64,000 nucleotides of DNA from Bacilli bacterium. Its GTDB lineage: Bacteria > Bacillota_I > Bacilli_A > RF39 > UBA660. The notes beneath the pieces were generated by a model that saw nothing but the letters and a program-made list of their open reading frames with translations, did no database searches and was not told where the DNA came from. Positions 1,902-29,144 of this stretch are shown here, in pieces. The DNA is taken from assembly GCA_017513865.1 (NCBI GenBank), contig JAFWMN010000003.1:1-64000 (forward strand). The letters run 5' to 3'. How positions within the stretch are numbered: the first letter of the stretch is position 1; every line of letters starts with the position of its first letter. The position numbers and the translations under genes were made by a program.

Positions 1902-3358
1902 TGGATTATAAAGTTATGATTGGTTTAGAGATGCACTGTGAAATTAGTGAAACCAAAACAAAAGTATTTTCAGGAGCTAAAAACGATTTCAGTGAATATC
2001 CCAATGACAGTGTAAAACCTATTGACATGGCTTTTCCAGGTACCCTTCCTACTGTTAACAAAGAGGCAGTTAGAATGAGTTTGATGGCCAGTATGATATT
2101 AGGCTGTAGTCAACCAGAATATTTATATTTTGAAAGAAAAAACTATTATTATCCGGATCTTCCTAAAGGGTTTCAAATAACCCAAGAAACAAAACCTGCT
2201 CCTATTGGAAGTTATGGTGAGTTTATATATGAACATGAGGGGAAAAAGAAAAAGGCAAGAATTAATAACCTGCACCTAGAAGAAGATGCGGCTAGCTCTG
2301 ACCATTATCCATCTGGTTCGAGAATTAATTATAACAGAGCAGGTGTTCCTTTACTTGAACTTGTTACTGAACCTGATTTTAGAAGTGCTGATGAAGCTGT
2401 CGCATTCTTAGAAGCAATTAGAAATATTTATAGATATGCTGGTATTAGTGAAGCTGATAGTAAAAAAGGACAAGTTAGATGTGATGTTAACGTTTCTATA
2501 ATGGATGCTTCATTAGATGAAACAAATCCTGAAAACTGGGGTACTAAAGTTGAAATAAAAAATGTCAATTCCTTCAGTGCAGTTAGAGATGCAATTAACT
2601 ATGAAATAGAAAGACAATTAAATCTTTTAAATAGCGGTAAAAAAGAAGAAATTGAACAAGAAACTCGTAGATGGGATGAGGAATCTGGAACAACTATCCA
2701 CATGCGTAGTAAAGTTGACGCTATTGATTATAAATATTTTGTTGAACCTAACATTCCAAAATTTAAAATAAAAAAAGAATGGCTAGAAGAAATTAGAAAA
2801 AGCATCCCAAGACTTCCATATGAAAGAAAAGAAACATATATAAATGAATATGGTATTACTGATTATGATGCCACAATCATTATAAAAGATAAAAAAATAT
2901 CTGATTTTTATGAAGAATGTATAAAATTAAAAGCTGATCCTAAAATGGCTTCTAACTGGATTACAACTAATTTACTTGGTAATTTAAATAAATTAGAATT
3001 AGAATTCGATGATCTTACATTAACTCCAAAAATGTTAAAAGATTTAATTGATTTAGTAGAATCTAAAGAAATATCTTCTAAACAGGCGAAAGAAGTATTC
3101 TTAGATATCCTAACAACTGGTAAGACACCTCAAGAAATTGTTAAAGAAAAGGATATGAAACAGATGAGTGATGAAGAAGAAATAGTTAAAATTGCTAACG
3201 AAGTTTTAGATGAAAATCCCGATGCTATAGATCAGTATAAAAAAGGTAGAACCAACGTTGTTGACTGGTTAACTGGACAAATTATGAAAAAAACAAAAGG
3301 TCAAGCAAATCCAACTATCGCCAGAAGCACAATGGCTACTGAAATAGAAAAAAGATAA
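1901..3358 (+). CDS. gatB: Asp-tRNA(Asn)/Glu-tRNA(Gln) amidotransferase subunit B
   Basis: GatB binds the mischarged tRNA, phosphorylates the side-chain carboxylate with ATP and amidates it. The 485-residue protein has the conserved N-terminal GLEMHCEI, the PDLPKGFQITQ segment, a central GTKVEIKNVNS stretch, and a C-terminal YqeY-like tail domain (about 330-485) ending in GQANPTIARS. The Shine-Dalgarno AAAGGAGG lies inside the end of gatA and the start overlaps the gatA stop. The operon ends in a hairpin just after the stop. Confidence 0.97.
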   Translation: MDYKVMIGLEMHCEISETKTKVFSGAKNDFSEYPNDSVKPIDMAFPGTLPTVNKEAVRMSLMASMILGCSQPEYLYFERKNYYYPDLPKGFQITQETKPAPIGSYGEFIYEHEGKKKKARINNLHLEEDAASSDHYPSGSRINYNRAGVPLLELVTEPDFRSADEAVAFLEAIRNIYRYAGISEADSKKGQVRCDVNVSIMDASLDETNPENWGTKVEIKNVNSFSAVRDAINYEIERQLNLLNSGKKEEIEQETRRWDEESGTTIHMRSKVDAIDYKYFVEPNIPKFKIKKEWLEEIRKSIPRLPYERKETYINEYGITDYDATIIIKDKKISDFYEECIKLKADPKMASNWITTNLLGNLNKLELEFDDLTLTPKMLKDLIDLVESKEISSKQAKEVFLDILTTGKTPQEIVKEKDMKQMSDEEEIVKIANEVLDENPDAIDQYKKGRTNVVDWLTGQIMKKTKGQANPTIARSTMATEIEKR

Positions 3359-3388
3359 GATTTCAAAAAAAGTGAAATCTTTTTTTAT
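3358..3388 (+). terminator. Rho-independent terminator of gatCAB
   Basis: An eight-base stem AGATTTCA / TGAAATCT closes a loop of A/G bases and is followed by a run of seven or more T, starting at the last base of the gatB stop codon. Confidence 0.9.
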
Positions 3389-3411
3389 TTTGTTCTAATT
3401 ATTTGTAAATG

Positions 3412-3420
3412 TGCTATAAT
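3412..3420 (+). promoter_or_regulatory. Extended -10 promoter for the zinc-ribbon gene pair
   Basis: TGCTATAAT is a perfect extended -10 (TGn plus TATAAT). It lies about 40 bases before the start of the next gene and just after the gatB terminator. A weak TTGTTC lies upstream at a 19-base spacing. Confidence 0.7.
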
Positions 3421-3460
3421 ATGATAAAGAATTTATTCTTTTAGAAAGGAAATGGGCTAT

Positions 3461-4636
3461 ATGTTTTGTCAAGAGTGTGGTAAGAAAAATACTAAAGAAT
3501 CTAAGTTTTGTGAAGAGTGTGGTGCCAAACTAGTTTCAAACACCAAAAAAAATGATAAAAAACCGATGAATAAAAAAAATAAAACAATCCTTATAATTGT
3601 TGCTACTATTTTAATATTAATAGTTTCTGCTTTTGCTATTTTGTCTAACAGATTTAAACCAGCAAATGTTGCTAAAGAGTACTTTGTGGCAGTTACTAGT
3701 GGAAATACTGATAAACTATACAATTATTTTGATGTTAAAAACTCTGATTTTACTAGTAAAAAAATCTTTAAAAAAGTAGTAATTCTACCAAAAGCCGAAA
3801 TTGTCAATTATTCGGTCGGAGAAGGGAAAATATCTGAAGATGGCCTAACCATGGAAGTTCCTATTAACTATATCACCAATACATCTAAAACATCAAATAA
3901 AGCTGTCATTAATTTAATGAAAGATAAGAAAAATAAATTTTTATTTTTTGACAACTGGAAAGTAAGTAATGAAAGTAGTGAATTAAAAACAGATTTTTCT
4001 ATATATGTTCCAAAAAAATCAAAAGTAATTTTAGAAGGCATTAATCTAGATAAAAAATATCTAAAGAAAAATGATAATAGTCAATATGATGAATATGTTA
4101 TTCCGCAAATATTTAAAGGCAAATATAAAGCAATAGCTACACTTAAAAGCGGATTATCTTTAGAAAGTGATGTTAATATTAGTGGTTCTAGTGCCTATCT
4201 AAGCAGTTTAAAATTGTCTTCTAAAGATAAAGAAAAAATAGAAAAAAAATTACCAGAAATTATTAATACAATTTATAAAAATGCAATTGATAAAAAAGCA
4301 TTTGGCGATATTAAAAAAGATTATGATTATGATGGGGCTAAACTTGATAATTTAGAAAAAGGCTATGTTTATCTAATGAATGGTACCACTTCAAGTGGAT
4401 TAAAAAAATTTAACACCAAAAGTGCGAAAATTACATCATCAAAAACAAGTGGTTCTTATATTTCTGTTACTGTTAAACTTAATTTTGAATATACAGCTAC
4501 TAAATCATTACTTGGTGAAGAAAAAACTAATTCTAAAGAAGATGAAGACATAATATATTTAGATTTTGATTATTTTAAAGGTGAATATAAGCTTGTAGAT
4601 ATTTCAAGTTGGCCAAAATATTTTAGTGTATTTTAG
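3461..4636 (+). CDS. Zinc-ribbon, TcaA/YvbJ-like membrane protein
   Basis: The 391-residue protein opens with a zinc ribbon made of two CxxC pairs (FCQECG and FCEECG, residues 2-23). A lysine-rich linker, one membrane helix (about residues 43-64) and a long extracytoplasmic part with repeated beta-type segments follow. This order matches the Firmicutes TcaA/YvbJ-type zinc-ribbon membrane proteins, whose outer domains have been linked to cell-wall stress. The function here is unproven. The start at 3461 has AAAGGA about ten bases upstream, whereas the earlier ATG at 3452 would sit on the ribosome site. The next gene is also a zinc-ribbon membrane protein, so the two probably work together. Confidence 0.75.
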   Translation: MFCQECGKKNTKESKFCEECGAKLVSNTKKNDKKPMNKKNKTILIIVATILILIVSAFAILSNRFKPANVAKEYFVAVTSGNTDKLYNYFDVKNSDFTSKKIFKKVVILPKAEIVNYSVGEGKISEDGLTMEVPINYITNTSKTSNKAVINLMKDKKNKFLFFDNWKVSNESSELKTDFSIYVPKKSKVILEGINLDKKYLKKNDNSQYDEYVIPQIFKGKYKAIATLKSGLSLESDVNISGSSAYLSSLKLSSKDKEKIEKKLPEIINTIYKNAIDKKAFGDIKKDYDYDGAKLDNLEKGYVYLMNGTTSSGLKKFNTKSAKITSSKTSGSYISVTVKLNFEYTATKSLLGEEKTNSKEDEDIIYLDFDYFKGEYKLVDISSWPKYFSVF

Positions 4637-4653
4637 AAAAGGAGTGTTAAAAA

Positions 4654-5337
4654 ATGGCTAAATTTTGTACAAATTGTGGAAAAAAATTAAAAGAAGGAGA
4701 AAAATGCGACTGTACACCAGCTGTAACTAGTAATATTGATTTTCAAAAAATATTAGATATTTGTAAAAATATGTTTATAAAACCAATAGATACAATGAAA
4801 GAATTTACGAAAAAAAGTAATTTTACGTTGGCAATGATTTTAACTGGAGCATTAAGTATAATTGCTGGTTTATTCGGAATGGCAATCATGAAAAACGCTT
4901 TTGCTTTAATAGGTAACCAATCTTTATATAGAACTTATGCATATGGAAGTATGCCTGTTAATATTCCATACGGAAAAATATTTTTTACTAGTTTAATTCT
5001 TGTGTTTGCTATTTCATTTATTTATTCTGGAGTTTTGTATTTAGTAAATACTATAATATTTAAAAGAACGGCAGACTTTAAAGAAGTATATGCTTTATAT
5101 GGTGTAACTTCAATAGTTATTTCAGTAACTATGCTTGTATCAAGTATATTAATGTTTTTAAACATTTATTTTGCATTTATAATCGTTGGTTTAGGTTCAA
5201 TATTAGCCACAGTGTATAATTATCACGGGCTTAAATTCCTAGGTGATAAAGATGAAAATAAATATGGCTATATTTATCTAACCACTTGTGTTGTTTTCTA
5301 CATAGTAGTATTCATAATTACAAAAATATTTTCTTAA
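4654..5337 (+). CDS. Zinc-ribbon multi-pass membrane protein (Yip1-like layout)
   Basis: The 227-residue protein starts with one zinc-ribbon (CTNCGKKLKEGEKCDC, four cysteines in the first 20 residues). About five hydrophobic helices follow, between residues 55 and 225. A ribbon plus a five-helix membrane domain recalls the Yip1 family of Firmicutes, but I cannot confirm the family by eye. It starts 17 bases after its zinc-ribbon neighbour with AAAGGAG as ribosome site, so the two form an operon that ends at the hairpin behind this gene. Confidence 0.65.
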   Translation: MAKFCTNCGKKLKEGEKCDCTPAVTSNIDFQKILDICKNMFIKPIDTMKEFTKKSNFTLAMILTGALSIIAGLFGMAIMKNAFALIGNQSLYRTYAYGSMPVNIPYGKIFFTSLILVFAISFIYSGVLYLVNTIIFKRTADFKEVYALYGVTSIVISVTMLVSSILMFLNIYFAFIIVGLGSILATVYNYHGLKFLGDKDENKYGYIYLTTCVVFYIVVFIITKIFS

Positions 5338-8647: not shown

Positions 8648-9920
8648 AATATCTTATGAAAATATTGATTTAGATGTTTATACCGAAGTTTTAGATAATG
8701 GACTTAGAGTGTTCTTAATCAAAATTCCAAGAAATGAAATTCATGCTAGAATTACAGCTTTATACGGTGGATCCATATTAGAATTTAAAACTAAAGGTGA
8801 TAAAGAATTTACAAAAGTTCCTGCGGGTATTGCCCATTTTCTAGAGCACAAAATGTTTGAAAAAAAAGATTTTGATCCTTTTCAAATATATGAAAAAAAT
8901 GGTGCATCAGCTAATGCCTTTACAACAGAAAAAATAACCTCTTATCATTTTACAGGCATTCATAATTTTTATGAAAATTTAAATATTTTACTCAGATGTG
9001 TTCATGAACCATACTTCACAGATGAAAACATAAATAAAGAAAAAGGAATTATTTCACAGGAAAAAATGGAAGACTTAGATAGTGTTTATTATATTACTAG
9101 AGATAAAGCATTTGAAAACACTTTCAAAAATTCCGGCTTTAAAAATTCTATTTTAGGTAGCTTAGAAGATATAAATAATATGACCAAAGAAGAACTATAT
9201 AAAGTTTATAATACTTTTTATCATCCAAGTAATATGCTGCTTACAATTAGTGGTGGAATTGATATAGAAGAAACTATGAAATTTATTAAAGATTATTATA
9301 GTAAAAAAGATTTTGGTCCTAAAAAAGAAATAATTTTAAAAGAAATAGATGAACCAAAAACAGTAGTAAAAGAAAAAGAAATTATATATAAAGACGTTAA
9401 ATCAAAAGAAATATATATAAATTATAAAATAAAGAAAAATGACAAAATGAAAGACAAATTTAAAAATATATGCTTTTTAAATATGTTTCTTCACATGAAC
9501 TTTGGTGGATTTTCGCCACTTAGTGATATAACCTTTAAAGATAAAAATTATTTGTCACCAATAAATAACAGTTTGTTAGTAGCTGATGATTTTTATATTT
9601 TACAATTTAACATAACTGCTAAAGATGATGCTGATGCTGTTATAGAGTTAATTGATGATACCTTAAATCAAAAGAAAACAAATGAAAATACATTTAACTT
9701 ACTTAAGAAAAACGATATTAGCTCTTTGATTGTATCAACAGAAAATGCTAAAACTATATGTCATAGAATAATTAGTCAAATACGCAATTATGGTAAACTT
9801 ATTACCGATATCCATAGCAGGTTAATTAATTTAGAATATAGTGATTTTAAAGAAATTATTAATTCATTAGACTTAAGCAACCGTGCTGTAGTTATTTTAG
9901 AATCAAAAAAAGACGATTAA
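8640..9920 (+). CDS. ymfH: M16 family zinc peptidase (YmfH-like)
   Basis: The 426-residue protein has the inverted zinc motif HFLEH at residues 66-70 (two zinc-binding His, catalytic Glu) and the distal Glu region EKGIISQEKMED about 75 residues later, so it is the likely catalytic half of the pair. The start at 8640 is preceded by AAAGGTGAT. An earlier in-frame GTG at 8631 is part of that ribosome site. It overlaps ymfF by 8 bases at its start and convergent yigZ by 4 bases at its end. Confidence 0.9.
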   Translation: MNKISYENIDLDVYTEVLDNGLRVFLIKIPRNEIHARITALYGGSILEFKTKGDKEFTKVPAGIAHFLEHKMFEKKDFDPFQIYEKNGASANAFTTEKITSYHFTGIHNFYENLNILLRCVHEPYFTDENINKEKGIISQEKMEDLDSVYYITRDKAFENTFKNSGFKNSILGSLEDINNMTKEELYKVYNTFYHPSNMLLTISGGIDIEETMKFIKDYYSKKDFGPKKEIILKEIDEPKTVVKEKEIIYKDVKSKEIYINYKIKKNDKMKDKFKNICFLNMFLHMNFGGFSPLSDITFKDKNYLSPINNSLLVADDFYILQFNITAKDDADAVIELIDDTLNQKKTNENTFNLLKKNDISSLIVSTENAKTICHRIISQIRNYGKLITDIHSRLINLEYSDFKEIINSLDLSNRAVVILESKKDD

Positions 9921-17246: not shown

Positions 17247-19736
17247 ATGACTTATGAAGAAAGAATAGAAGAGTTAGAAAAAAGAGAAAGAGAATTGCGA
17301 TTAGCATTTATTAATGATGAGCCAATTAATGTAGAAAAAGTCAATGAAAATGGTGAAAAAACTTTTGTTAAAATTAACCCTACAGATATGGACAACTATA
17401 TACCAAGTTATCGTAAAGAAAAAGAGTTAATTGAAAAAGAGTTAAAAAAATTAAGAGTTGAAACTGCCTATGAAAGTGGAAGCCCATTAACTTATCACTA
17501 TGTTGAAAATGGTCAAGAAGGGGATAGACAAGTAACTTCAGAAAATAAAGATGAATATAGAAAAGCTTATGAACAGCAAATTAGATTCATTGAACAGGGC
17601 AGACAAACTACAGATGACTTGATGAAAGAAACTAATCAAAATGTATATGGCCAACAAGAGATGGAAGCAGAATTAGATAGAATGATTGATGAAATACATA
17701 GAGAAAACCCATATACAGAAACCCCATGGCAAAGGCTTACACCAGAAACACCAGAACCTACAGTAAGCTCAGGTCCAGAGTTAACTCCAGAAAGAGAAGA
17801 AGAATATAATAGATTAATGACTGAAATTCTCGGAGATAATCAACAAACAGAATCAGTAGTAGAACCAGCAACAAAACCAGTACCAGAACTAACCCCAGAA
17901 AGCGAAGAGGAGTATAATAAAATAATGGATGAAATTCGTAGAAATAATCAACCACCAGAAACACCAGAACCTATATTAGGGCCAGAACTAACCCCAGAAA
18001 GAGAAGAAGAATATAATAAAATAATGAATGAAATTCATAGAAATAATCAACCACCACAAACAGAAGTGTCTACAGATATTTTTGCCCAACAACCATCATC
18101 AATAGTTGAATCTACAACAGAATCAACGGAAGAACCTGCAGTTGAGGATCAACCAGTAGTAGCATATGAAGAACCAAACTATGAAGATATGGAAGATGAT
18201 GAATTACAAGCATATTTATTAAATTGTAGAGAACGAATTAAAAGATGGACAATGACAGATGAAGAATTACAAGAATACATAGAAAACCTGAAACAAGGTG
18301 GCTATACAGAAGCCGAAATTAAAGAAGAAATAAAAGCTACAGAAGATGATCTTGATTACTATGAAGCAGAATTAAAAAAAATAGAAGCAGAAATAGAAAG
18401 AAGAAAAACACAAAAAGATGAAATAGATAATGATGAAGATGATGAAAAATCACCAGCAGAAATGACAGACGAAGAATTAAAAGAGTACATAGAAAATCAT
18501 AGAGTATGGCTTAACTTTTATTCGGTGCCTGAAAATAAACAAAAAGATATAAATGATTTAAAAACAGCAAACCCTGGAAAAACAGATGAAGAGATTGAAA
18601 GAGAAATAGAAGAATTACATACGATAATGAGGACAGAATTAAAAGAGGCTGAAAAAGAAGAAGAAAAAAGAAAAACAACAAGCAATAATCCAACACAAGA
18701 TTCTGCACAAACCACACAAAGCAAACCAATTGTAATATTTGAATCAGGTGGCAAGGTATTTGTTGTTGGTGATATTGCGCCTGAAAAAGTACAAGAAGAA
18801 GTACGAAAAACTAATAGTCCATTGATAAATAAATATCATGGAAAGTATAGTTTTAGTTCTAACGTAGAACCTAGAAAGCATGCTTATCCTAACACAAATG
18901 TCATTTTAACCATAGATGAAAATGGATTATTTAAAGTAGAAGGGGCCGACGAAGTAGAATATTATAACCAACCAACCGCCCAAAAAACCGACGATGGAAT
19001 TAAAGGATTCGATGATGGGTTGGGAGACTTAGAAGAACCCGATTTAGATGTTTCAGATATAGGAACAATTGATAAAAATCCAATCATTCCACCAACTGCT
19101 AGAAAAGCTCAATCACGTGAAAAAAATGAAGAATTAGCTAAAAAATTTAAAAAAGCACTTCTAATAGTTGCTGGAGCCGCTTTAGCTATGGGGGCAATAT
19201 ATTTATTTTCTAAATATGCCCTAGATATAGATATAATTGAAAATTTAAGACATCTTATATCTGGTAATAATACACCAGCTGATGTTACTCCAATTGCTAA
19301 ACATGTTAATAGCGCTATTGGTAATATAACAAACCATGTCGGTGATACTGTCAAACATTTTTCTAATGGTGGACATATTAATGGAACAATAGGTGAGTTT
19401 ATTTCCAATGTTGCTAATACAGGACAAGATGCAATTCAATCTGCTAGAGGGGCTTCAGACGTTACCCAACAAGTTGTTGCTATAGGTGATGCTTGGGCAC
19501 CAGGTGGCGTATCTGGATTTGTTAGAGTTGCTGGTGATGCAGCTGTTGGCGGAACTGTTGATTTAAATAGTGTCGATACTGTTTATGCAACGTTAAATGA
19601 TGCGATTAATGGTACTAATGGAATGCCGATTAGTGAATATGCAAGACCTAATATTGTTGGTGTTTATGACCAAATAACCGGAGTCTTTAATACTGACACC
19701 TTAAGCAATGTTGTTCAAGGAGGTAGAGTTATATAA
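17247..19736 (+). CDS. Large coiled-coil, repeat-rich single-pass membrane protein
   Basis: I do not recognise this 829-residue protein. Residues 1-130 are charged and helical. Residues about 140-275 hold three clear copies of a unit built on PELTPE(R/S)EEEYN followed by IxEIxRNNQ, with proline/threonine linkers. A fourth, weaker copy lies upstream. Residues about 335-480 hold two copies of a helical unit beginning MTDEEL(Q/K)EYIEN. A likely membrane helix lies near 635-657 (ALLIVAGAALAMGAIYLF). The final 170 residues are rich in Gly, Asn, Val and Ala. With no signal peptide, the repeat region is probably cytoplasmic and the tail outside. It has a strong TAAGGAGG ribosome site, and its stop overlaps the start of the next gene. 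Confidence 0.8.
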   Translation: MTYEERIEELEKRERELRLAFINDEPINVEKVNENGEKTFVKINPTDMDNYIPSYRKEKELIEKELKKLRVETAYESGSPLTYHYVENGQEGDRQVTSENKDEYRKAYEQQIRFIEQGRQTTDDLMKETNQNVYGQQEMEAELDRMIDEIHRENPYTETPWQRLTPETPEPTVSSGPELTPEREEEYNRLMTEILGDNQQTESVVEPATKPVPELTPESEEEYNKIMDEIRRNNQPPETPEPILGPELTPEREEEYNKIMNEIHRNNQPPQTEVSTDIFAQQPSSIVESTTESTEEPAVEDQPVVAYEEPNYEDMEDDELQAYLLNCRERIKRWTMTDEELQEYIENLKQGGYTEAEIKEEIKATEDDLDYYEAELKKIEAEIERRKTQKDEIDNDEDDEKSPAEMTDEELKEYIENHRVWLNFYSVPENKQKDINDLKTANPGKTDEEIEREIEELHTIMRTELKEAEKEEEKRKTTSNNPTQDSAQTTQSKPIVIFESGGKVFVVGDIAPEKVQEEVRKTNSPLINKYHGKYSFSSNVEPRKHAYPNTNVILTIDENGLFKVEGADEVEYYNQPTAQKTDDGIKGFDDGLGDLEEPDLDVSDIGTIDKNPIIPPTARKAQSREKNEELAKKFKKALLIVAGAALAMGAIYLFSKYALDIDIIENLRHLISGNNTPADVTPIAKHVNSAIGNITNHVGDTVKHFSNGGHINGTIGEFISNVANTGQDAIQSARGASDVTQQVVAIGDAWAPGGVSGFVRVAGDAAVGGTVDLNSVDTVYATLNDAINGTNGMPISEYARPNIVGVYDQITGVFNTDTLSNVVQGGRVI

Positions 19737-20175: not shown

Positions 20176-20204
20176 CTTTACAAATAAATAATGTGTAAAG
20201 GAGG
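20176..20204 (+). promoter_or_regulatory. Leader hairpin beside the Shine-Dalgarno of the first TasA-like gene
   Basis: CTTTACA (20176-20182) can pair with TGTAAAG (20194-20200), and the right arm overlaps the first bases of the ribosome site AAAGGAGG (20197-20204). When folded, it would partly mask the site. Confidence 0.45.
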
Positions 20205-20211
20205 TGTGCTT

Positions 20212-20748
20212 ATGAAAGGAAATAAAAAAATCTTAATTTTAGCTGTTTTAGTTCTTTTAATCGCTGTATGCTTCACAACATATGCAATCTATAAATCATC
20301 TGCTACAGGTAATGGTTCAGTTAAGGCTGCAGCTTGGGTTGTAAAAGTTAATAATACCGATATCGTTGCTAATAACACATTTACTCTTGGTAATATTAAT
20401 TGGGGAGAAAGTAGAATAGGACAAAATGATACCATTGCACCAGGAGATACTGGAACTGTTACTATCACTATTGATGCTACCGGTTCAGAGGTTGATGTTG
20501 ATTATGCAATTACTATTAATACTGCATCTCTTAACAATGATCAATTTACTGTTACAGCTGCAACAGGATCAAGTCTAACCGGTACAATCGAATATGGTGA
20601 AAGTATGACTAGAACTGTTACTTTAAATATTACTTGGAATGGCGTTGATACTGATTCAGCCAATGCTCAAGATATTTCGTTAGCAGCACAAACAATTGGA
20701 ATTCCAGTTACTGTAACTGCAACGCAAAATCCTAATCCAGCTGCCTAG
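20212..20748 (+). CDS. TasA/camelysin-like fibre protein with SipW-type signal peptide (1)
   Basis: The 178-residue protein begins with a long hydrophobic segment (residues 6-26) followed by a short Ala/Ser-rich stretch, the layout of SipW substrates such as TasA and CalY. The mature part (from about residue 37) is a beta-rich, Thr/Asn-rich domain with almost no charge clusters (APGDTGTVTITIDATG, VDVDYAITIN), expected for a secreted fibre or matrix subunit. As the first gene after a strong promoter, separated from the rest by hairpins, it could be the major component. The start is the ATG at 20212 behind AAAGGAGG; the ATG at 20191 lies on the ribosome site. Confidence 0.82.
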   Translation: MKGNKKILILAVLVLLIAVCFTTYAIYKSSATGNGSVKAAAWVVKVNNTDIVANNTFTLGNINWGESRIGQNDTIAPGDTGTVTITIDATGSEVDVDYAITINTASLNNDQFTVTAATGSSLTGTIEYGESMTRTVTLNITWNGVDTDSANAQDISLAAQTIGIPVTVTATQNPNPAA

Positions 20749-20828: not shown

Positions 20829-21620
20829 ATGACAAAAAGTACAAAAAGAATTGTTAATAAGAAAAGTATAAATAAAAAGAATCAAAAAAAGAAAAACAAC
20901 TATGTCGATAGAGCAATTGAAATTGTATTAATCATCGTTATTATTTTATTATTACTGCACAACTGTGGTTTTTCTAAAAAAGAAGGCAAAGAAAAAACAC
21001 CAAGTGGGAATGTAAATATCATCGAAATCAAATGTGATGATAATGGTAAATGTAGGAAAGATGATAAAAACGGTGAAATAGTGGTCGATGATAATACTAA
21101 ATCCTCTGGTTCAAAAAAATCTGAAAACAAAGGATCAGTTTCACCGTCAGATTCTAATGATAGCGGTGAATCAGAAGATGATTCAGAGGAAGAAGATGAC
21201 GGTAATTTTAAAGTTTATGACAAGAAAGTTACATGGAGTGAGTCAACAGATTTAAATATTTTTTCAAATTCTTTTTATAACTATGAAGATATAATCGCCC
21301 CTGAAAGTAGTAATGTATATCAATTTGTTTTAAAAAACTCTACTGATTACAATTTGAAATATAGTATAAGTTTTTCAGAGACAAACCCTTATAACATTAA
21401 TTTAAAATATAAGCTTAAGAAAAATAACAGTTACATTGTGAGTAATTATGTATCATATGATCAATTAAATTTAAGTGATGAACTTTTAAATTCGAAAAAA
21501 AGTGATACCTTCTATTTAGAGTGGAAATGGATAAGTAGTGATAATGATACAGATGTCGGAAAAATTCAAGCTAATTATAATTTAAAAATTAATGTTGAGG
21601 CTGAAAGTGTAAATGAATAA
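20829..21620 (+). CDS. Membrane-anchored accessory protein of the SipW operon
   Basis: The 263-residue protein has a lysine-rich N-terminus, one membrane helix (about residues 33-50, followed by a Cys), a low-complexity Ser/Asp/Glu linker (about 100-130) and a beta-rich outer domain (about 135-260) with IIAPESSNVYQFVLKN and FYLEWKWISSDND. The domain resembles the TasA-like sandwich and suggests a fibre anchor or assembly protein. The linker would carry the domain through the wall. It ends 8 bases inside sipW. I cannot name the family. Confidence 0.7.
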   Translation: MTKSTKRIVNKKSINKKNQKKKNNYVDRAIEIVLIIVIILLLLHNCGFSKKEGKEKTPSGNVNIIEIKCDDNGKCRKDDKNGEIVVDDNTKSSGSKKSENKGSVSPSDSNDSGESEDDSEEEDDGNFKVYDKKVTWSESTDLNIFSNSFYNYEDIIAPESSNVYQFVLKNSTDYNLKYSISFSETNPYNINLKYKLKKNNSYIVSNYVSYDQLNLSDELLNSKKSDTFYLEWKWISSDNDTDVGKIQANYNLKINVEAESVNE

Positions 21621-22056
21621 AATATTTAAAATGACATTTAATATTGTATTTATTTTGATGATTATCTTTTTAGCTACATATTTTATATTAAGAGTTTTAG
21701 GTATAGCTGAAATATTTAAAGTCCAAACGGCTTCCATGGAAGACAACATACACGCAGGTGATTATATATTAATTTGTAAAAAAAACAATTATAAAGTGGG
21801 TGATGTTGTCACATATAAGAAAGACAATTATCATGTGACCCATAGAATTGTTAAGAAAAAGGCCTTTAAAGTAGTTACAAAAGGAGATGCAAATAATATT
21901 GAAGATGCTGAAATAAGCATTAAAGATATTATCGGCAAAGTAATTTATTGTGGAGGAATTTTAAATTTTCTAATAAATTATAAATATGCAATCGCAAGTT
22001 TTTTTCTTGCCATATACTTATTTAGTTGCTATTTTGAAAAAAAAGAAGAAGTTTAA
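21613..22056 (+). CDS. sipW: ER-type signal peptidase I (SipW-like)
   Basis: SipW-type peptidases use Ser-His-Asp rather than the Ser-Lys pair of ordinary bacterial type I enzymes. Here Ser41 in TASMEDNI, His77 in VTHRIV and Asp92 in KGDANN are all present, and no KRVIG lysine box is seen. The 147-residue protein has membrane helices at both ends (about 8-28 and 118-138). It overlaps the upstream gene by 8 bases and sits among genes with SipW-type signal peptides, which it presumably cleaves. The ordinary LepB enzyme is encoded separately at 63.5 kb. Confidence 0.92.
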   Translation: MNKIFKMTFNIVFILMIIFLATYFILRVLGIAEIFKVQTASMEDNIHAGDYILICKKNNYKVGDVVTYKKDNYHVTHRIVKKKAFKVVTKGDANNIEDAEISIKDIIGKVIYCGGILNFLINYKYAIASFFLAIYLFSCYFEKKEEV

Positions 22057-22077
22057 GGAGTGAAAGGAAGTGTCAGC

Positions 22078-22542
22078 ATGAAGAGAATAATAACATTATT
22101 ATTTATTCCAATTTTTGTATTATTTATTTTCTTTGCTGCAAAATCTTTTGCTATATTTAAAAGTCGTGGACAAGGTGAAGATACGACCCCAGCAGCTAGT
22201 TGGAGTGTCTCACGTAATCAAAGTCTTATCACTGATTCCATAGATTTAGTACCAGGTACGGTAACAGATGATTATACTTTAACAGTTACAAGTTATTCAG
22301 AAGTTGATATAACATATGCGGTTATTATTAGTAATTTACCAAGTGATGTTAGAGTAACTTTAGAAGGAGTAACATATGAGCCAACAAACAATACGATAAG
22401 AGTTGATAATGTTGGAACAATAAATTATAGTGATCAAGATAAAACGAAAAATCACACGTTAACCTTTAGTGCAATTTCTGGGGCCCAAACAGTATCAGCC
22501 CAAGAAATAAATATAGATGTTGAATTTAAACAAAAAGTGTAA
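22078..22542 (+). CDS. TasA-like protein with SipW-type signal peptide (2)
   Basis: The 154-residue protein shows the same design as the first fibre gene: a hydrophobic N-terminal segment (residues 5-23), then SFAIFKSRGQGE, and a beta-rich domain with no long charged region. It shares little sequence with the first copy, so it is probably a minor subunit or tip/anchor component. The start at 22078 follows AAAGGAAG. The GTG at 22060 overlaps the ribosome site and is not favoured. It begins 21 bases after sipW. Confidence 0.75.
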   Translation: MKRIITLLFIPIFVLFIFFAAKSFAIFKSRGQGEDTTPAASWSVSRNQSLITDSIDLVPGTVTDDYTLTVTSYSEVDITYAVIISNLPSDVRVTLEGVTYEPTNNTIRVDNVGTINYSDQDKTKNHTLTFSAISGAQTVSAQEINIDVEFKQKV

Positions 22543-22571: not shown

Positions 22572-25500
22572 ATGAAGAAGCATTTTAAAATCTTAGTGTT
22601 AATTGTCGCATTATTCTTTTTCTGTGCTCTTATTAAGGGCTCATTTTCTATTTATAAAGAGTTAAAAGATGATACAATAGATTTAAATATACGAGATTCA
22701 ATAACTTGTTCTTTAAGATTTGATCCAACAGATGGTGAAATAGATCCGGATCCATATATTATGACAGTTACCGCTGGCACGCAAATAGGACCTTTACCAA
22801 CACCAACTAGAACTGGCTATAACTTTGCTGGTTGGTATACTGATCCATATACTGGTTCTAAAATAAGCAGTAATACTATAGCTACTACTGATGATACATT
22901 TTATGCTCGCTGGGTAAAACTAGTTTGTAAAAAAGCAACGACCCTTCACTCTGAAACTTGTAGTTCTGATGGATCGTGTTATACAAAGGGTTATTATGGT
23001 AATAATGCGAAAATTGATTATGGTAATATTCCTGGAGTTAACAGCCCAGCTACAGGTGATGCTTATGACTGCGATGTAAATGATGATGGAGTTTATGATC
23101 CAGCAACTGAAAGATTTTATTATATTAGGGAAGTTGTTGAAGATTCAGGTAGCGTACCTATTGGAAATAGCTTTTTAGTTCATTATACAAGTTTCGATGA
23201 AAGTGGTCAGATGGATTCCTCTAAAGATAGAGGTAGTTATACTTATGATCTTGCCAAGAGTTATCTACCAAAAAGTTCTCTTCCAACTTTAGCTCTATGG
23301 GACAATAGTGCCCTTATAAGTATGGATGGAAATGTAACAAGATTTATAAATCGTGATGATCTAACTGAAGCTTGTGGTTCTAATACTGGAGGAAATTATT
23401 TCGCCACTTGTAAATTTTTCTTAGAAAACAGTAGATTTCAATCTAAAAATTCAGGTAGAGCCGGAATATGGTTAGAAAAAGAAGAAAATCAAAACTATCG
23501 AATTCATACAGAAACCTTACTTGCTGGGGCAGCTGATACTGATAGTTCAAATACAGCTAGACCAGTTATCCAGATTCCTTCTAATACAATTGAAGGGTAT
23601 CAAGAAAAAGAACTATATAGAGTAACTTTTAATTCACAAGGTGGAAATCCTAGTACAATTCAAAGGTATAAATATGATGGTCAAAAAATAGGTACTCTTC
23701 CTGAAGAACCAACAAAAACAGGTTATACATTTGATGGTTGGTATACAGGAACAAATGGTAGTGGCACTAAAATAACCGAAAATACGGTTGTTTCTGGAAT
23801 TACTACATATTATGCTAATTGGCTTCTTAATTTAACAATTAACTTTGATGCTAATGGCGGAACAGTAAGCCCAACTTCAAAAACTGTCCCACAAGGAAGA
23901 GCCATTGGTGAACTACCAAATCCTACTTATGAAGGGTACGAATTTTTAGGGTGGTTTACAGAGACTTCTGGCGGGACACAAGTAACAGAAAACACTGTTA
24001 TTAACGCTGGAGGAACAATTCATGCTCACTGGAAATCAGAAGATGCTCTTTTACAATATGTGTTTTACATACCTGGTGAATGTACATTTACTTCTTCAGG
24101 TTTAGCTAATGGTACTAATGGTAATTGTGTAAGTACTATTAATCCAACTGGTTCGGATATAGATTATACGGTAGGTTCTTTAAGAACAAAAAAATACATA
24201 GATACACAAATTGCTTTATATAATTCAACTAATCATGGAAAAGATTATGAAATTGGATTTAATATTGTATCGTATAATTCTAGTAGTAATACTTCCAGAG
24301 CAACTGTAATGAATACTAAGGCAGAGATAAATGACTCAACAATTAAGTATCCTGGTCTTACATTCAGAAAAGATGAAACTACAGATAATTTTATTCTTCA
24401 ATCTAGGGAAACTTTAACTTCTAATGCTTCACAGACATTTGCTTCTAGTAGTGTACAGTCTGTTAGAATATTTAGAACAGGTAATGAAATTTTTTATAGT
24501 ATAAATGGTGGCATTAAAACTAGCTTGAATGATTTAACTGAGTATAATCCAGAATTTGATTTAAATACATGGTTTGGTGCAGCGCCTAAAAATGATACAG
24601 CGACAACTGCTCAAAGATACTTCATTGGTACATTGAGTAACATGTATATCAAATTAGCGCCAGACGCTTCACAAATAGCTAATGTAACATTTGATTTAAA
24701 TTATACTGGAGCGCCTTCTCCAACAGATCGCGAAGCTATAAAGGGTAATCCGATTGGATATTTAACTTCACCAACGCGAACAGGCTATACATTTGTTGGA
24801 TGGTTTACAGGTGATACTGGCGGAACACAAATAACTTCAGATACAATTATAGATGACGATATCACTTTCTATGCTCACTGGGCAGAAAATATAACTGTAA
24901 CGTTTGACGCTAATGGCGGAACAGTAAGTCCTAATACAAAAACATTTGGTACGGGAATGGCAATTGGAGAATTACCAACTCCAGAATATACTGGTCACTC
25001 ATTCTTAGGTTGGTATATGGATAATACATGGAATACAGAAGTTACATCATCAACAGTATTTAATTCGGGAACAACAATAGTTGCTAAATGGGCAGAAAGT
25101 ATAACCGTAACATTTGATCCTAATGGAGGATCAGTAAGTCCTATTTCTAAGACATTTGGTACAGGAACGGCAATTGGGGAATTACCAACTCCAGAGTATG
25201 ATAATCATACATTTAAAGGTTGGTATACTGATAATACATGGGCAACAGAAGTTACAACCTCAACAGTATTTAATTCGGGAACAACAATAGTTGCTAAATG
25301 GGTAGAAAATGTTACAATTAGTTTTGATGCTGATGGCGGAACTGCTTCCTTTAATTCAAAATCAATTGAACCTGGAACGGCAATTGGCGAACTTCCAACA
25401 GCTACTAAAACCAATAAAATTTTTGATGGTTGGTATTTAGATAATGGTTTATATGATACTGAAATAACTGACCAAACAGTAGCAAATACAGGATTAAATG

Positions 25501-28500
25501 TTATTGCTAAATGGATAAATATAAATTATGTGGCTGAAGTAAATGGCACACAGTATGAGACTTTAGATGAGGCTATTGCTGATGTTCCAAAAACTGGTGT
25601 TAAAACAACAGTTACCTTATTAGATAATGTTGAATTAAGTTCGGCTATAACAATTCAAAGTACCCAGAATGTTGAATTAGATTTACAGACCTTTACTATC
25701 TCTGGTTCTTCATCTACATTGTTTATAAATGAAGGAACGCTTAACATTTCAAATGGAACTATTACTTCTTCAGCTCCTGAAACAAGTACTACCGGATTTG
25801 TTGTTGAAAACAAACGATATGCAATATTAAATATATCTGGTGGCTTGTTAAGAGGTACAGGAACTAATGTTATAATTAATGCCGGTACGATTAATATGAC
25901 TGGTGGTAGGTTAGAGGCAACTAATCAATCTGCAGCAATTAATAATAACCAATATGGTGTAATGACTATGTCAGCTGGTGAAATAGTCGCAACATCTACA
26001 ACTAAAGGACAAGCAATTTACAATAATAAAGGAACACTTACAATAAGTGGAACAGCTTATTTAGAAAACAAATCACAGACAAGTAGTGGTTCTGGTAGAG
26101 CTTGTGTTCACAATAATGAAGGTACAGTTAATATTTTAGGCGGAACTATTGTTAGTAAGGCTAATGCTGGTGTTAAAAATAATGACACTATGACTATAGG
26201 TAGTGATGATGGAAGCATCAGTACCACTAGTCCTGTTATACAAGGCCATACTTATGGTTTGGAAACAGTCTCAGGTAAAACAGTTATTATATATGATGGT
26301 ATCTTTAGAGGTGGGGCAGGATCAAATCCTAAAAAAGCTATAAGCAATGAAACATATACTAGTCATAGTAATTATATAATCACACATGACACAGAGACAA
26401 TTGATAATGTCACATACGATATTGCATATCTAGTAGCCCCAACAGTTAACTACACAGTTACCTTTAATGCACTAGCTAATGGTGGTTCAATAGATCCTGG
26501 TGGAAATAATACGCAAACATATACAGCAGTTGGCCCAATTGGAGATATGCCTACTGCCTCAAAAACTAATGCCGCATTCTTAGGCTGGTTTACTTCAGCT
26601 TCTGGTGGAGAAAAAGTTTTAACCACAACAGAAGTTAATGATGATATAACATATTATGCACATTATACAAGTCAAACAACAGTATGTAGACCAGCAACTA
26701 CATTGCATTCTTCTAGTGGAACAGATTTTGGTCAACTTACTTCAGGTGGAATTTTAAGTTCGGGTGATGCGTTTGACTGTGACGTGGATGGAGATGGTAC
26801 TTACGATGCCACTACTGAAAGATTCTATTATTTAACTGATAGTAGTGATGGAAATGCTATATTTGTATTTTATAATAATACTTCACAAGCAGGCGGAAAT
26901 AATGGAGAACCTATCTGTAGTGCAACCGCTGTAGCCTATGGGTCTAATGGACCTAGTACAGCAAGCGGAGAACTTCCAACAACTACACAGTGGACTAATG
27001 TTAGTTTATATTCCGAGCCAAGAGATATAAGTGATGAAACGGGTTCTATAGTTCAAAATGATTATATTTATGCTGGTAAAGCTGCAAGATTAGCTACTTT
27101 AAATGAAATAAAAGCAGCCACTAGTTCTAGTATTAATGGAACAGCAAATGAACTTGCCAATTATGAATTTCTTTTAGAAAATACTATTTCTTATGGTTCT
27201 GGATGTAGATCTAATTATTGGTTAGAAACATATAATTCTGTTGAAGGCGTGCATAGAATTAATGGTGCATCAGATGCAAAAAGTTTGGGACATGCTACTG
27301 GTAATTCTGGTGTAAGGCCGGTTATTGAAGTTCCTTATTCTTCGGTTGATGGGGCGGTACAAATAGTTCCATTTGATACTATTCCAACAGCAATGAGAAC
27401 ATACTTTAATAATGTTAGTACTTGGAATATTGGTCAAAGTGATGCGAATGCTGGTCAAAGTAACGCCGGTTATACTTCTTTTGAAACAGCTATGTATAAT
27501 AACTTATCAAATAATAACTGTGTATATTATCTAAATGATAATGTTAATACCGGATATGGTTCTGTATATTGTGATCAGCCAAATAAATATGATACTGGTG
27601 TTACCGGTAATATAAATGTTTATGAATATAATGAATCAACTGGTGTTATATCTAATAGTACGGCAAGTTATGTGTTTAATGATAATGGTAAATTATATAA
27701 TTTTATTCCTGGGAAAGTATATTATTGGGAATCAGCTAGTGATAGTACTAAGAATGGTTACGTTAGACCTACTGGCGAACGTCGTCTTATTTCCATTCCT
27801 GGAACCACAAGACAAGTACGTAATGTTCGTGATTTAGGTGGTCTTCCAGTTGATACTGATGGTAATGGTACAATAGATGGGACTATAAAATATCAAAAAT
27901 TATATCGTGGTGAAAAGCTTTGGGGAACTAACCATAATGGTGTAACTAGAAGCCAATTTGAAGCACTTGGTATATATAATGAATTTGATTTACGTACTCA
28001 AAATTCGGAAATTGTTCCTGCAGAAGAAGATCAGTTATCAAATTATACTCCATACGAAATAGTTCATTATAAAATTGATCATACTGAATTTGGTTCTGCT
28101 GCATCAGAGACTAGGTTTAATGGTAAGAGTTATTATCAACTTGCTAGAGATGCCGCTATTGATGTTATGCAGAAGGTTGTAGCGGGTAATGATGATTATG
28201 CCCTTTATTTCCACTGCCGTATCGGAGCAGATAGAACGGGAACACTTGCTTATATTCTCGAAGGACTTCTAGGAGTTCCAACTGAATATAGATATCAAGA
28301 CTATGAATTAACAACCTTCTATGGTTTAAGAGAAAGAACTAGATATTATTATAAAAAAGATAGTACTAATGATTCTTATAAATTCATTTATTTAAAGAAA
28401 GCTATACGTCATGCAACCCAAGATAATGATGAAGTGACTGGCATCGAAGATGTTTGGGCTTGGTTTACTTTAGAAGGAACAACAGTAGATGGTGTAAACT

Positions 28501-28553
28501 TAACTAATTTAGTTAACCAGTTTAGAACAAAGATGATTGATAGTAATTCATAA
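22572..28553 (+). CDS. Giant surface protein: InlB-type repeats, beta-helix, C-terminal tyrosine phosphatase
   Basis: The 1993-residue exported protein has a SipW-style N-terminal hydrophobic segment (about 7-26). Eight InlB B/Listeria-Bacteroides repeats follow (about 45-115, 348-418, 419-488, 703-772, 773-842, 843-912, 913-983, 1292-1366), each with GxxxxGWxT and ending in (A/H)xW. A lectin-like module spans about 492-700 and a beta-helix rich in GTxNxxxG spans about 985-1290. A module with an Asp-rich loop (DCDVNDDGVYD) is duplicated at about 117-345 and 1370-1600. Residues 1746-1990 match the PF13350-type tyrosine phosphatase: RNVRDLGG, FDLRTQNSE and HCRIGADRTG with nucleophile Cys1882. 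There is no LPxTG or wall anchor. The order, last in the sipW operon, suggests it is a client of SipW. The substrate is unknown. Confidence 0.88.
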   Translation: MKKHFKILVLIVALFFFCALIKGSFSIYKELKDDTIDLNIRDSITCSLRFDPTDGEIDPDPYIMTVTAGTQIGPLPTPTRTGYNFAGWYTDPYTGSKISSNTIATTDDTFYARWVKLVCKKATTLHSETCSSDGSCYTKGYYGNNAKIDYGNIPGVNSPATGDAYDCDVNDDGVYDPATERFYYIREVVEDSGSVPIGNSFLVHYTSFDESGQMDSSKDRGSYTYDLAKSYLPKSSLPTLALWDNSALISMDGNVTRFINRDDLTEACGSNTGGNYFATCKFFLENSRFQSKNSGRAGIWLEKEENQNYRIHTETLLAGAADTDSSNTARPVIQIPSNTIEGYQEKELYRVTFNSQGGNPSTIQRYKYDGQKIGTLPEEPTKTGYTFDGWYTGTNGSGTKITENTVVSGITTYYANWLLNLTINFDANGGTVSPTSKTVPQGRAIGELPNPTYEGYEFLGWFTETSGGTQVTENTVINAGGTIHAHWKSEDALLQYVFYIPGECTFTSSGLANGTNGNCVSTINPTGSDIDYTVGSLRTKKYIDTQIALYNSTNHGKDYEIGFNIVSYNSSSNTSRATVMNTKAEINDSTIKYPGLTFRKDETTDNFILQSRETLTSNASQTFASSSVQSVRIFRTGNEIFYSINGGIKTSLNDLTEYNPEFDLNTWFGAAPKNDTATTAQRYFIGTLSNMYIKLAPDASQIANVTFDLNYTGAPSPTDREAIKGNPIGYLTSPTRTGYTFVGWFTGDTGGTQITSDTIIDDDITFYAHWAENITVTFDANGGTVSPNTKTFGTGMAIGELPTPEYTGHSFLGWYMDNTWNTEVTSSTVFNSGTTIVAKWAESITVTFDPNGGSVSPISKTFGTGTAIGELPTPEYDNHTFKGWYTDNTWATEVTTSTVFNSGTTIVAKWVENVTISFDADGGTASFNSKSIEPGTAIGELPTATKTNKIFDGWYLDNGLYDTEITDQTVANTGLNVIAKWININYVAEVNGTQYETLDEAIADVPKTGVKTTVTLLDNVELSSAITIQSTQNVELDLQTFTISGSSSTLFINEGTLNISNGTITSSAPETSTTGFVVENKRYAILNISGGLLRGTGTNVIINAGTINMTGGRLEATNQSAAINNNQYGVMTMSAGEIVATSTTKGQAIYNNKGTLTISGTAYLENKSQTSSGSGRACVHNNEGTVNILGGTIVSKANAGVKNNDTMTIGSDDGSISTTSPVIQGHTYGLETVSGKTVIIYDGIFRGGAGSNPKKAISNETYTSHSNYIITHDTETIDNVTYDIAYLVAPTVNYTVTFNALANGGSIDPGGNNTQTYTAVGPIGDMPTASKTNAAFLGWFTSASGGEKVLTTTEVNDDITYYAHYTSQTTVCRPATTLHSSSGTDFGQLTSGGILSSGDAFDCDVDGDGTYDATTERFYYLTDSSDGNAIFVFYNNTSQAGGNNGEPICSATAVAYGSNGPSTASGELPTTTQWTNVSLYSEPRDISDETGSIVQNDYIYAGKAARLATLNEIKAATSSSINGTANELANYEFLLENTISYGSGCRSNYWLETYNSVEGVHRINGASDAKSLGHATGNSGVRPVIEVPYSSVDGAVQIVPFDTIPTAMRTYFNNVSTWNIGQSDANAGQSNAGYTSFETAMYNNLSNNNCVYYLNDNVNTGYGSVYCDQPNKYDTGVTGNINVYEYNESTGVISNSTASYVFNDNGKLYNFIPGKVYYWESASDSTKNGYVRPTGERRLISIPGTTRQVRNVRDLGGLPVDTDGNGTIDGTIKYQKLYRGEKLWGTNHNGVTRSQFEALGIYNEFDLRTQNSEIVPAEEDQLSNYTPYEIVHYKIDHTEFGSAASETRFNGKSYYQLARDAAIDVMQKVVAGNDDYALYFHCRIGADRTGTLAYILEGLLGVPTEYRYQDYELTTFYGLRERTRYYYKKDSTNDSYKFIYLKKAIRHATQDNDEVTGIEDVWAWFTLEGTTVDGVNLTNLVNQFRTKMIDSNS

Positions 28554-28628: not shown

Positions 28629-29144
28629 ATGAGTGGTAAAAGAAGAGTATATAGTAAAAAGAATGATATGCAGAATACTAGAGTTATGCGAAACATAAAA
28701 ATTTCAAATGAAAATAAACTAATAAATTTAAAAAATATTGTAATTTCATTAACAATAATTGTCTTCATTATTTTTATGATTTTAGTTTTTATAAAACTTA
28801 CTAGTGGGCCTAAAAAAAATGATAATCTCACTTATAATAAAAATAAAAGTTTTGTTAAGACGCAAAAAATTGATGGACTTATTTTTAAAAATATTAAATG
28901 TTCTTATGATGGAAAGAATTCTTTAATAACATATAGCGTTGTTAATAATACGGGCAAAGAGACTGAATTAAGTAATTATAATATAATTGTTAAAGATAAA
29001 AATAATGTTCCAATTACAAAAATTGCTGTTGGCACCGGCAAGAAAATAAAACCTAAACAAACAGAAATAATGACTCATAGTATTATAGGTGCTGATTTAA
29101 GTGATGCTTATTCAATGCAGTTAGAATTAAAGAAAAATGAGTAA
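28629..29144 (+). CDS. Single-pass membrane protein with an FxLYD-like outer domain
   Basis: The 171-residue protein has a basic cytoplasmic N-terminus, one strong membrane helix (about 37-59) and an outer beta domain (about 80-168) with IFKNIKCSYDGKNSLITYSV and a final LELKK. The domain recalls the small FxLYD/Ig-like modules seen in Firmicutes envelope proteins, but the assignment is tentative. It has its own promoter and terminator and stands between the SipW operon and the amidase gene. The ribosome site is TAGGTGAT. Confidence 0.65.
   Translation: MSGKRRVYSKKNDMQNTRVMRNIKISNENKLINLKNIVISLTIIVFIIFMILVFIKLTSGPKKNDNLTYNKNKSFVKTQKIDGLIFKNIKCSYDGKNSLITYSVVNNTGKETELSNYNIIVKDKNNVPITKIAVGTGKKIKPKQTEIMTHSIIGADLSDAYSMQLELKKNE

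What the first reader, a model, noticed from the sequence alone, without database searches (positions are those of the whole stretch)
22572..28553. Exported giant protein ending in a tyrosine-phosphatase domain inside a SipW operon
A predicted 1993-residue surface protein has eight InlB-type repeats, a lectin-like module, a beta-helix and a duplicated Asp-rich-loop module, and then a complete PF13350-like phosphatase (RDLGG, DLRT, HCRIGADRTG, Cys1882). An apparently intact CX5R phosphatase on a secreted matrix protein is an unusual fusion. It could act on host phosphoproteins or on phosphosugars of the envelope.
Basis: partly seen in the sequence, partly recalled or inferred. Interest (0 to 1): 0.85.

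Follow-up and report, generated by a model that had tools for sequence, protein, structure and literature searches.

The report
Surface protein ending in exported phosphatase
A very large exported protein of an uncultured gut Bacilli bacterium carries at its tail a fibronectin-type-III plus phosphatase unit with an intact-looking active site; twelve related genomes have the same unit on such giants, so the fusion is real and under selection, but what it dephosphorylates is unknown.

Summary
ORF 22572-28553 is one uninterrupted 1993-residue frame with eight InlB-type repeats and a C-terminal PF13350 phosphatase (E 4.5e-21, above the curated cut-off). AlphaFold models the two-domain unit at pLDDT 91.5; it matches C. 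difficile PTP and M. tuberculosis PtpB. The expected catalytic residues (RDxGG, HCx2GxDRTG) are invariant in 31 relatives and the domain is under purifying selection. It is no assembly error: 14 giants in 13 genomes carry the unit and form one clade (SH-aLRT 100). Their nearest kin are free-standing exported phosphatases; short (~250 aa) phosphatases fall apart from both. The P-loop Lys that defines 'atypical lipid phosphatases' (HCxxGKDR) is Ala/Thr in every giant, which weakens a phosphoinositide reading. The operon is accessory: absent from six congeners, reduced to a deletion scar in one relative, and in another the orthologous giant ends before the phosphatase. Best reading: an exported, active enzyme head on an optional adhesin/matrix protein; substrate untested. 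New variant of a known kind.

The parts
22572..28553 (+). Giant exported protein, 1993 aa, with C-terminal FN3 + phosphatase unit
22572..22655 (+). N-terminal export signal ending in GSFSIYKE, a motif shared with the operon's small exported proteins (TYAIYKS, SFAIFKS) and with orthologues that have the signal peptidase gene
   Evidence: sequence
22923..23606 (+). First Asp-rich-loop module (residues about 118-345)
24054..24683 (+). LamG/lectin-like region (residues about 495-704), sub-threshold
25560..26420 (+). Repetitive region read as beta-helix (residues about 997-1283); not modelled
   Evidence: sequence
26679..27371 (+). Second Asp-rich-loop module (residues 1370-1600); low-confidence model, no PDB match
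27606..27800 (+). Fibronectin-III-like domain (residues about 1679-1743)
27810..28550 (+). PF13350 phosphatase domain (residues 1747-1993)
28212..28241 (+). P-loop HCRIGADRTG with nucleophile Cys1882 and candidate general acid Asp1887
20191..20748 (+). Small exported protein, TasA-like by position and signal only (no family match)
20829..21620 (+). Membrane-anchored operon protein of unknown family
21613..22056 (+). SipW-like (ER/archaeal-type) signal peptidase I
22060..22542 (+). Second small exported protein directly upstream of the giant
28629..29144 (+). Downstream membrane-anchored protein kept next to the giant in relatives, including the phosphatase-less one

Best explanation
It is an optional, exported surface or matrix protein whose stalk (InlB-type repeats, Asp-rich modules, LamG-like and beta-helix-like regions) carries a catalytically competent FN3 + PTP-superfamily phosphatase head at its C-terminus. 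Shown: single gene; fold and catalytic residues; conservation of the fusion; accessory status. Inferred: the signal peptidase of the same operon processes the giant and its small neighbours; the protein stays near the cell in an extracellular matrix; the phosphatase uses Cys1882 as nucleophile, Arg1888 to bind phosphate and Asp1887 as general acid; the stalk places it on a gut surface or particle. The most likely job is release of phosphate from small or exposed phosphorylated compounds near the cell (a broad-specificity phosphomonoesterase, as measured for the secreted family member Pho16B) rather than phosphoinositide hydrolysis inside a host cell. I give the anatomy and 'exported active enzyme' about 0.8 and this substrate class about 0.35.
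For: Single ORF and domain calls. AF2 model of residues 1596-1993: pLDDT 91.5, pTM 0.93; best structural matches C. difficile PTP 8dhi (Z 15.4, 2.6 A over 189 residues) and PtpB 1ywf (Z 14.7), clearly above the next row at 10.8; profile hits 8dhi 6e-30, PtpB 2e-11, FN3 domains about 2e-6. Fifteen invariant columns in 31 relatives, including H-C-G-D-R-T-G of the P-loop and R/D/G/G of RDxGG. dN/dS median 0.15 for the phosphatase against 0.38 for the beta-helix and 0.29 for the first Asp module; 0.05-0.09 for the phosphatase in close pairs. 14 giants in 13 genomes form one clade (SH-aLRT 100) beside the exported phosphatases, apart from the short ones. Ten of 12 giants whose upstream DNA is held have the signal peptidase gene upstream and a [STA]x[AGS]I[YF][KR]-type N-terminus; the two without it have AxA-type N-termini. 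Secreted Pho16B, a Y_phosphatase3 protein, is promiscuous and hydrolyses InsP6 (PMC6409689).
Against: No activity, localisation or processing data exist. The profile's last 55 positions are not matched. The substrate is inferred from one family member that has the P-loop Lys this protein lacks. No anchoring motif was identified, so retention at the cell is assumed. dS is near saturation for most pairs (about 1), so dN/dS is rough.
Confidence: 0.6

Rival explanations
1. Host- or mucus-directed enzyme: the adhesin binds host cells or mucins and the phosphatase removes phosphate from extracellular host phosphoproteins or phosphoglycans, altering signalling or the mucus layer.
For: Adhesin-like stalk with InlB-type repeats; one relative's record title names goat ileum; distant relatives PtpB and Listeria Lmo1800 act on phosphopeptides and phosphoinositides (PMC3091653).
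Against: No ligand or host target known; no translocation system seen; P-loop Lys for phosphoinositides absent in all 14 giants; sister proteins are simple lipoproteins, up to six PF13350 matches per genome, which fits nutrient or envelope use at least as well.
Confidence: 0.2
2. Self-directed enzyme: it acts on phosphorylated wall polymers, matrix glycans or proteins of the bacterium itself, tuning envelope or biofilm.
For: The operon holds a SipW-like peptidase and small exported proteins, and an amidase-LysM gene lies next to it; a matrix role is typical of SipW/TasA operons (established knowledge; PMC4292775 and PMC10151520 were listed but not read).
Against: The small operon proteins match no TasA family; the operon is absent from congeners that keep the amidase.
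Confidence: 0.25
3. Pseudo-enzyme: the domain has lost activity and serves as a phosphate- or phosphosugar-binding module.
For: Divergence from the profile (4-185 of 240) and loss of the P-loop Lys.
Against: Cys, Arg, Asp, His and RDxGG invariant in 31 relatives; strongest purifying selection of the domains measured.
Confidence: 0.08
4. Artefact: two genes joined by assembly or sequencing error.
For: The genome is a 41-contig draft.
Against: Same in-frame fusion in 13 genomes; no stop inside.
Confidence: 0.01

Closest known systems
Free-standing exported FN3 + Y_phosphatase3 lipoproteins of the class (L057-L072)
   Same: Same two-domain unit, same invariant catalytic residues, mostly Ala/Thr at P-loop position 5, exported
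   Different: About 340-765 aa, mostly with a lipobox or other simple signal; no InlB stalk found
C. difficile PTP (PDB 8dhi/8dhj)
   Same: Closest solved fold, Z 15.4 over 189 residues, 20% identity
   Different: Stand-alone 249-residue chain with no stalk or FN3
M. tuberculosis PtpB / atypical lipid phosphatases (HCxxGKDR[TA]G), incl. Listeria Lmo1800
   Same: PtpB fold (Z 14.7), Cys nucleophile, Asp in the P-loop
   Different: P-loop Lys replaced by Ala (Ala or Thr in the other giants); fused to a giant surface protein
Pho16B (soil metagenome)
   Same: Exported Y_phosphatase3 protein; measured promiscuous phosphatase with InsP6 activity
   Different: Keeps HCxxGKDR; 38 kDa stand-alone
SipW/TasA matrix operons of Bacillus
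   Same: SipW-like signal peptidase next to small exported proteins
   Different: Small proteins match no TasA family; a giant phosphatase-bearing protein is included
InlB-repeat (Flg_new) surface proteins
   Same: Eight Listeria-Bacteroides repeats
   Different: No leucine-rich-repeat family matched; phosphatase head

Membership tests
Y_phosphatase3 (PF13350) | Score above curated cut-off | tested here: met
   76.4 bits against 22.2; all 31 units match the family at E <= 0.01
Y_phosphatase3 (PF13350) | Full-length match of the profile | tested here: inconclusive
   positions 4-185 of 240 only
PTP superfamily (CX5R) | CX5R P-loop in a PTP fold | tested here: met
   C1882-x5-R1888; model matches 8dhi and PtpB
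Atypical lipid phosphatase (ALP) | P-loop HCxxGKDR[TA]G with conserved Lys | tested here: not met
   HCRIGADRTG; no giant of the clade has Lys; definition in PMC3091653 and PMC6409689
Atypical lipid phosphatase (ALP) | Asp at P-loop position 6 as general acid | tested here: met
   Asp1887 present and invariant; its catalytic role here is inferred
Atypical lipid phosphatase (ALP) | Activity on phosphoinositides | not testable with these tools
   needs an enzyme assay
Fibronectin type III | FN3 sequence/fold match | tested here: met
   6 of 31 units match PF00041, best 6.5e-5; alignment profile hits FN3 chains at about 2e-6; strands 86-147 of the model. The window's own unit has no Pfam fn3 hit by itself
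InlB/Flg_new repeat proteins | Repeat model above cut-off | tested here: met
   8 stretches, 321.5 bits, cut-off 27
SipW signal peptidase | ER/archaeal-type signal peptidase I | tested here: met
   TIGR02228 77.3 bits, cut-off 51.85
SipW signal peptidase | Bacillus SipW equivalog model | tested here: not met
   NF046067 34.1 bits, cut-off 190
TasA/CalY fibre proteins | Family match of the small operon proteins | tested here: not met
   no relevant match in Pfam or NCBIfam

The most novel reading that the evidence does not exclude
A phosphatase built into a signal-peptidase-dependent extracellular fibre or adhesin: gut Bacilli display a PTP-fold enzyme on a long stalk to dephosphorylate host or mucosal phosphoproteins or glycans outside any host cell, and individual species gain or lose this head as a module.
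Probability: 0.2. Interest if true: 0.75.

Novelty: new variant of a known kind. Interest (0 to 1): 0.52.

Why it matters
Exported PTP-fold enzymes are known mainly as stand-alone proteins. Here one is the end piece of a giant InlB-repeat protein in an accessory signal-peptidase operon of uncultured gut Bacilli, conserved in 13 genomes and under purifying selection, with a P-loop that departs from the phosphoinositide-type signature. It gives a well-bounded, expressible 398-residue unit (1596-1993) for finding out what gut bacteria dephosphorylate outside the cell, and a natural comparison (orthologue L086 without the head) for what the head adds.

Tried and rejected
Assembly or frameshift artefact: rejected (13 genomes). 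Broken catalytic loop: rejected (invariant residues, confident model). Pseudo-enzyme: unlikely (selection). ALP membership: rejected on the P-loop Lys. Phosphatase shared by the whole genus: rejected (0 of 6 congeners). Fold of the Asp-rich module: AF2 model of low confidence (pLDDT 71.3), no Foldseek match with E under 1 and no Z of 2 or more among the 12 chains compared, so its fold stays open; only a weak DUF6273 link. Literature searches for tyrosine phosphatase with Listeria-Bacteroides repeat found no paper, and for phosphatase with InlB B-repeat only four papers with single mentions. Searches for the LipA lipoprotein and RF39 surface proteins were not useful.

Full report
Observation. 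Window 22572-28553 is one ATG-started frame of 1993 codons without stops. Pfam gives eight Listeria-Bacteroides (InlB-type) repeats and Y_phosphatase3 at 1747-1930, both above curated cut-offs; the Laminin_G_2 hit is below its cut-off. The window lies on contig C13 of a 1.3 Mb, 41-contig draft genome that has no other PF13350 match.

What the C-terminus is. An alignment of residues 1596-1993 with 30 relatives has invariant R1738, N1751, R1753, D1754, G1756, G1757, R1779, H1881, C1882, G1885, D1887, R1888, T1889, G1890 and D1910 (converted to protein numbering). AlphaFold2 gives pLDDT 91.5 and pTM 0.93, with a run of strands before the phosphatase. A profile of the alignment finds C. difficile PTP (8dhi, 6e-30), PtpB (2e-11) and several fibronectin-III chains at about 2e-6 in the preceding stretch; Pfam fn3 is found in 6 of 31 members. 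VIA-align puts 8dhi (Z 15.4, 2.6 A, 189 residues) and PtpB (Z 14.7) well ahead of the next fold at 10.8. So the unit is FN3 + PTP-superfamily phosphatase.

Is it working DNA? Pairwise dN/dS among seven close orthologues has median 0.15 for the phosphatase, 0.17 for the FN3 stretch, 0.21 and 0.29 for the second and first Asp-rich modules and 0.38 for the beta-helix; close pairs give 0.05-0.09 for the phosphatase. dS is near 1 for most pairs, so these are rough, but the ranking says that the phosphatase and FN3 are the best-kept parts.

Relatives. Six genome contigs encode close relatives of the C-terminal unit (73-77% identity); the five with full ORFs are 1906-2196 aa. In the own family 9 of 193 sampled genomes have PF13350, eight of them in giants; an order-wide draw added the giant of G706. 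In all there are 14 giants in 13 genomes. A tree of the phosphatase domains (quick method, 54 rows) puts the 14 giants in one clade (SH-aLRT 100), among rows that are otherwise exported proteins of about 340-765 aa, and the 21 short proteins on the other side of a branch at 100. All 21 short proteins have Lys at P-loop position 5 (xCxxGKDR); all 14 giants have Ala or Thr, as do most exported ones. One giant in another family (G252, L056) has the phosphatase in mid-protein and a C-terminal membrane segment, and does not fall in the giant clade, so it looks like a separate fusion.

Context and export. Upstream lie a small exported protein, an unknown membrane protein, a SipW-like signal peptidase (TIGR02228 over cut-off; Bacillus SipW model far below) and a second small exported protein. 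Of the 12 giants with upstream sequence at hand, ten (window, L011/L054, L012, L013, L014, L016/L049, L048, L051, L052, L091) have this peptidase upstream and an N-terminus such as GSFSIYKE, GTFSIYRE or TNAIYRD, close to the TYAIYKS and SFAIFKS of the small proteins; the two without it, L047 and L050, have SYAAE and VLAAN. That the peptidase cleaves the giant is an inference from this covariation.

Accessory nature. None of six same-genus genomes has the domain. In G722 (L094) the homologues of window genes 14848 and 15933, an ndk-like gene, the amidase, deacetylase and sugar-phosphate mutase lie together without the operon; G694 (L097) keeps part of the same order, also without it. The amidase is inverted relative to the window, so this is not a clean empty site. 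In G747 (L092, about 8970-9480) the start of the first small exported gene is followed at once, out of frame, by CTIGTDRTGTIAYFLEGLLG... to the C-terminus, that is, the P-loop and tail of a giant: a deletion scar of the operon. In G025 (L086) the orthologous giant, with the same upstream small gene and the same downstream gene, stops at residue 1205 after the beta-helix and lacks the second Asp-rich module, FN3 and phosphatase. A giant in G153 (L087) also ends there. The head is therefore a dispensable module; whether it was gained or lost in each case is not settled.

Function. Beresford et al. (PMC3091653) report that in this enzyme group the P-loop Asp is essential for catalysis and the Lys is important for phosphoinositide binding. 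The window protein keeps the first and lacks the second, though it has Arg at P-loop position 2. It fails the ALP signature but may work by the same chemistry. Pho16B, an exported Y_phosphatase3 protein, is promiscuous, with InsP6 activity at about 30% of its best substrate (PMC6409689). I therefore favour an exported broad phosphatase held near the cell by a stalk, with host-directed and self-directed roles as live rivals.

Noticed in passing
L092 (G747:C12) about 8970-9480: Operon deletion scar: start of the first small exported gene abuts the P-loop and tail of a giant's phosphatase.
   Followed up: partly
L086 (G025:C60) 605-4222: Orthologous giant that ends after the beta-helix, without second Asp-rich module, FN3 and phosphatase.
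   Followed up: yes
G133, many contigs (L088): Fourteen matches to the Asp-rich module in small (about 280-430 aa) exported-looking proteins scattered over one genome.
   Followed up: no
G038:C2 about 115428-116954: An open frame of 7120 aa that contains the Asp-rich module.
   Followed up: no
L071 (G360:C12) 626-5306: Three consecutive genes each encoding an exported FN3 + phosphatase protein with P-loop HCWGGADRT.
   Followed up: partly
G316:C12:4035-5462: One 490-aa frame with two PF13350 domains in tandem.
   Followed up: no
L083 (G000:C33 about 182305): A second signal-peptidase gene with small exported proteins elsewhere in the window's own genome, without a giant in the stretch seen.
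   Followed up: no
window 17247-19736: An 829-aa Glu/Pro-rich protein with a transmembrane segment and no Pfam match, upstream of the operon.
   Followed up: no
L011, L012, L013, L014 upstream of the signal peptidase gene: The operon's membrane-anchored protein (408-418 aa there, 263 aa in the window) has extra PASTA-like repeats in these orthologues (by eye, no family search).
   Followed up: no
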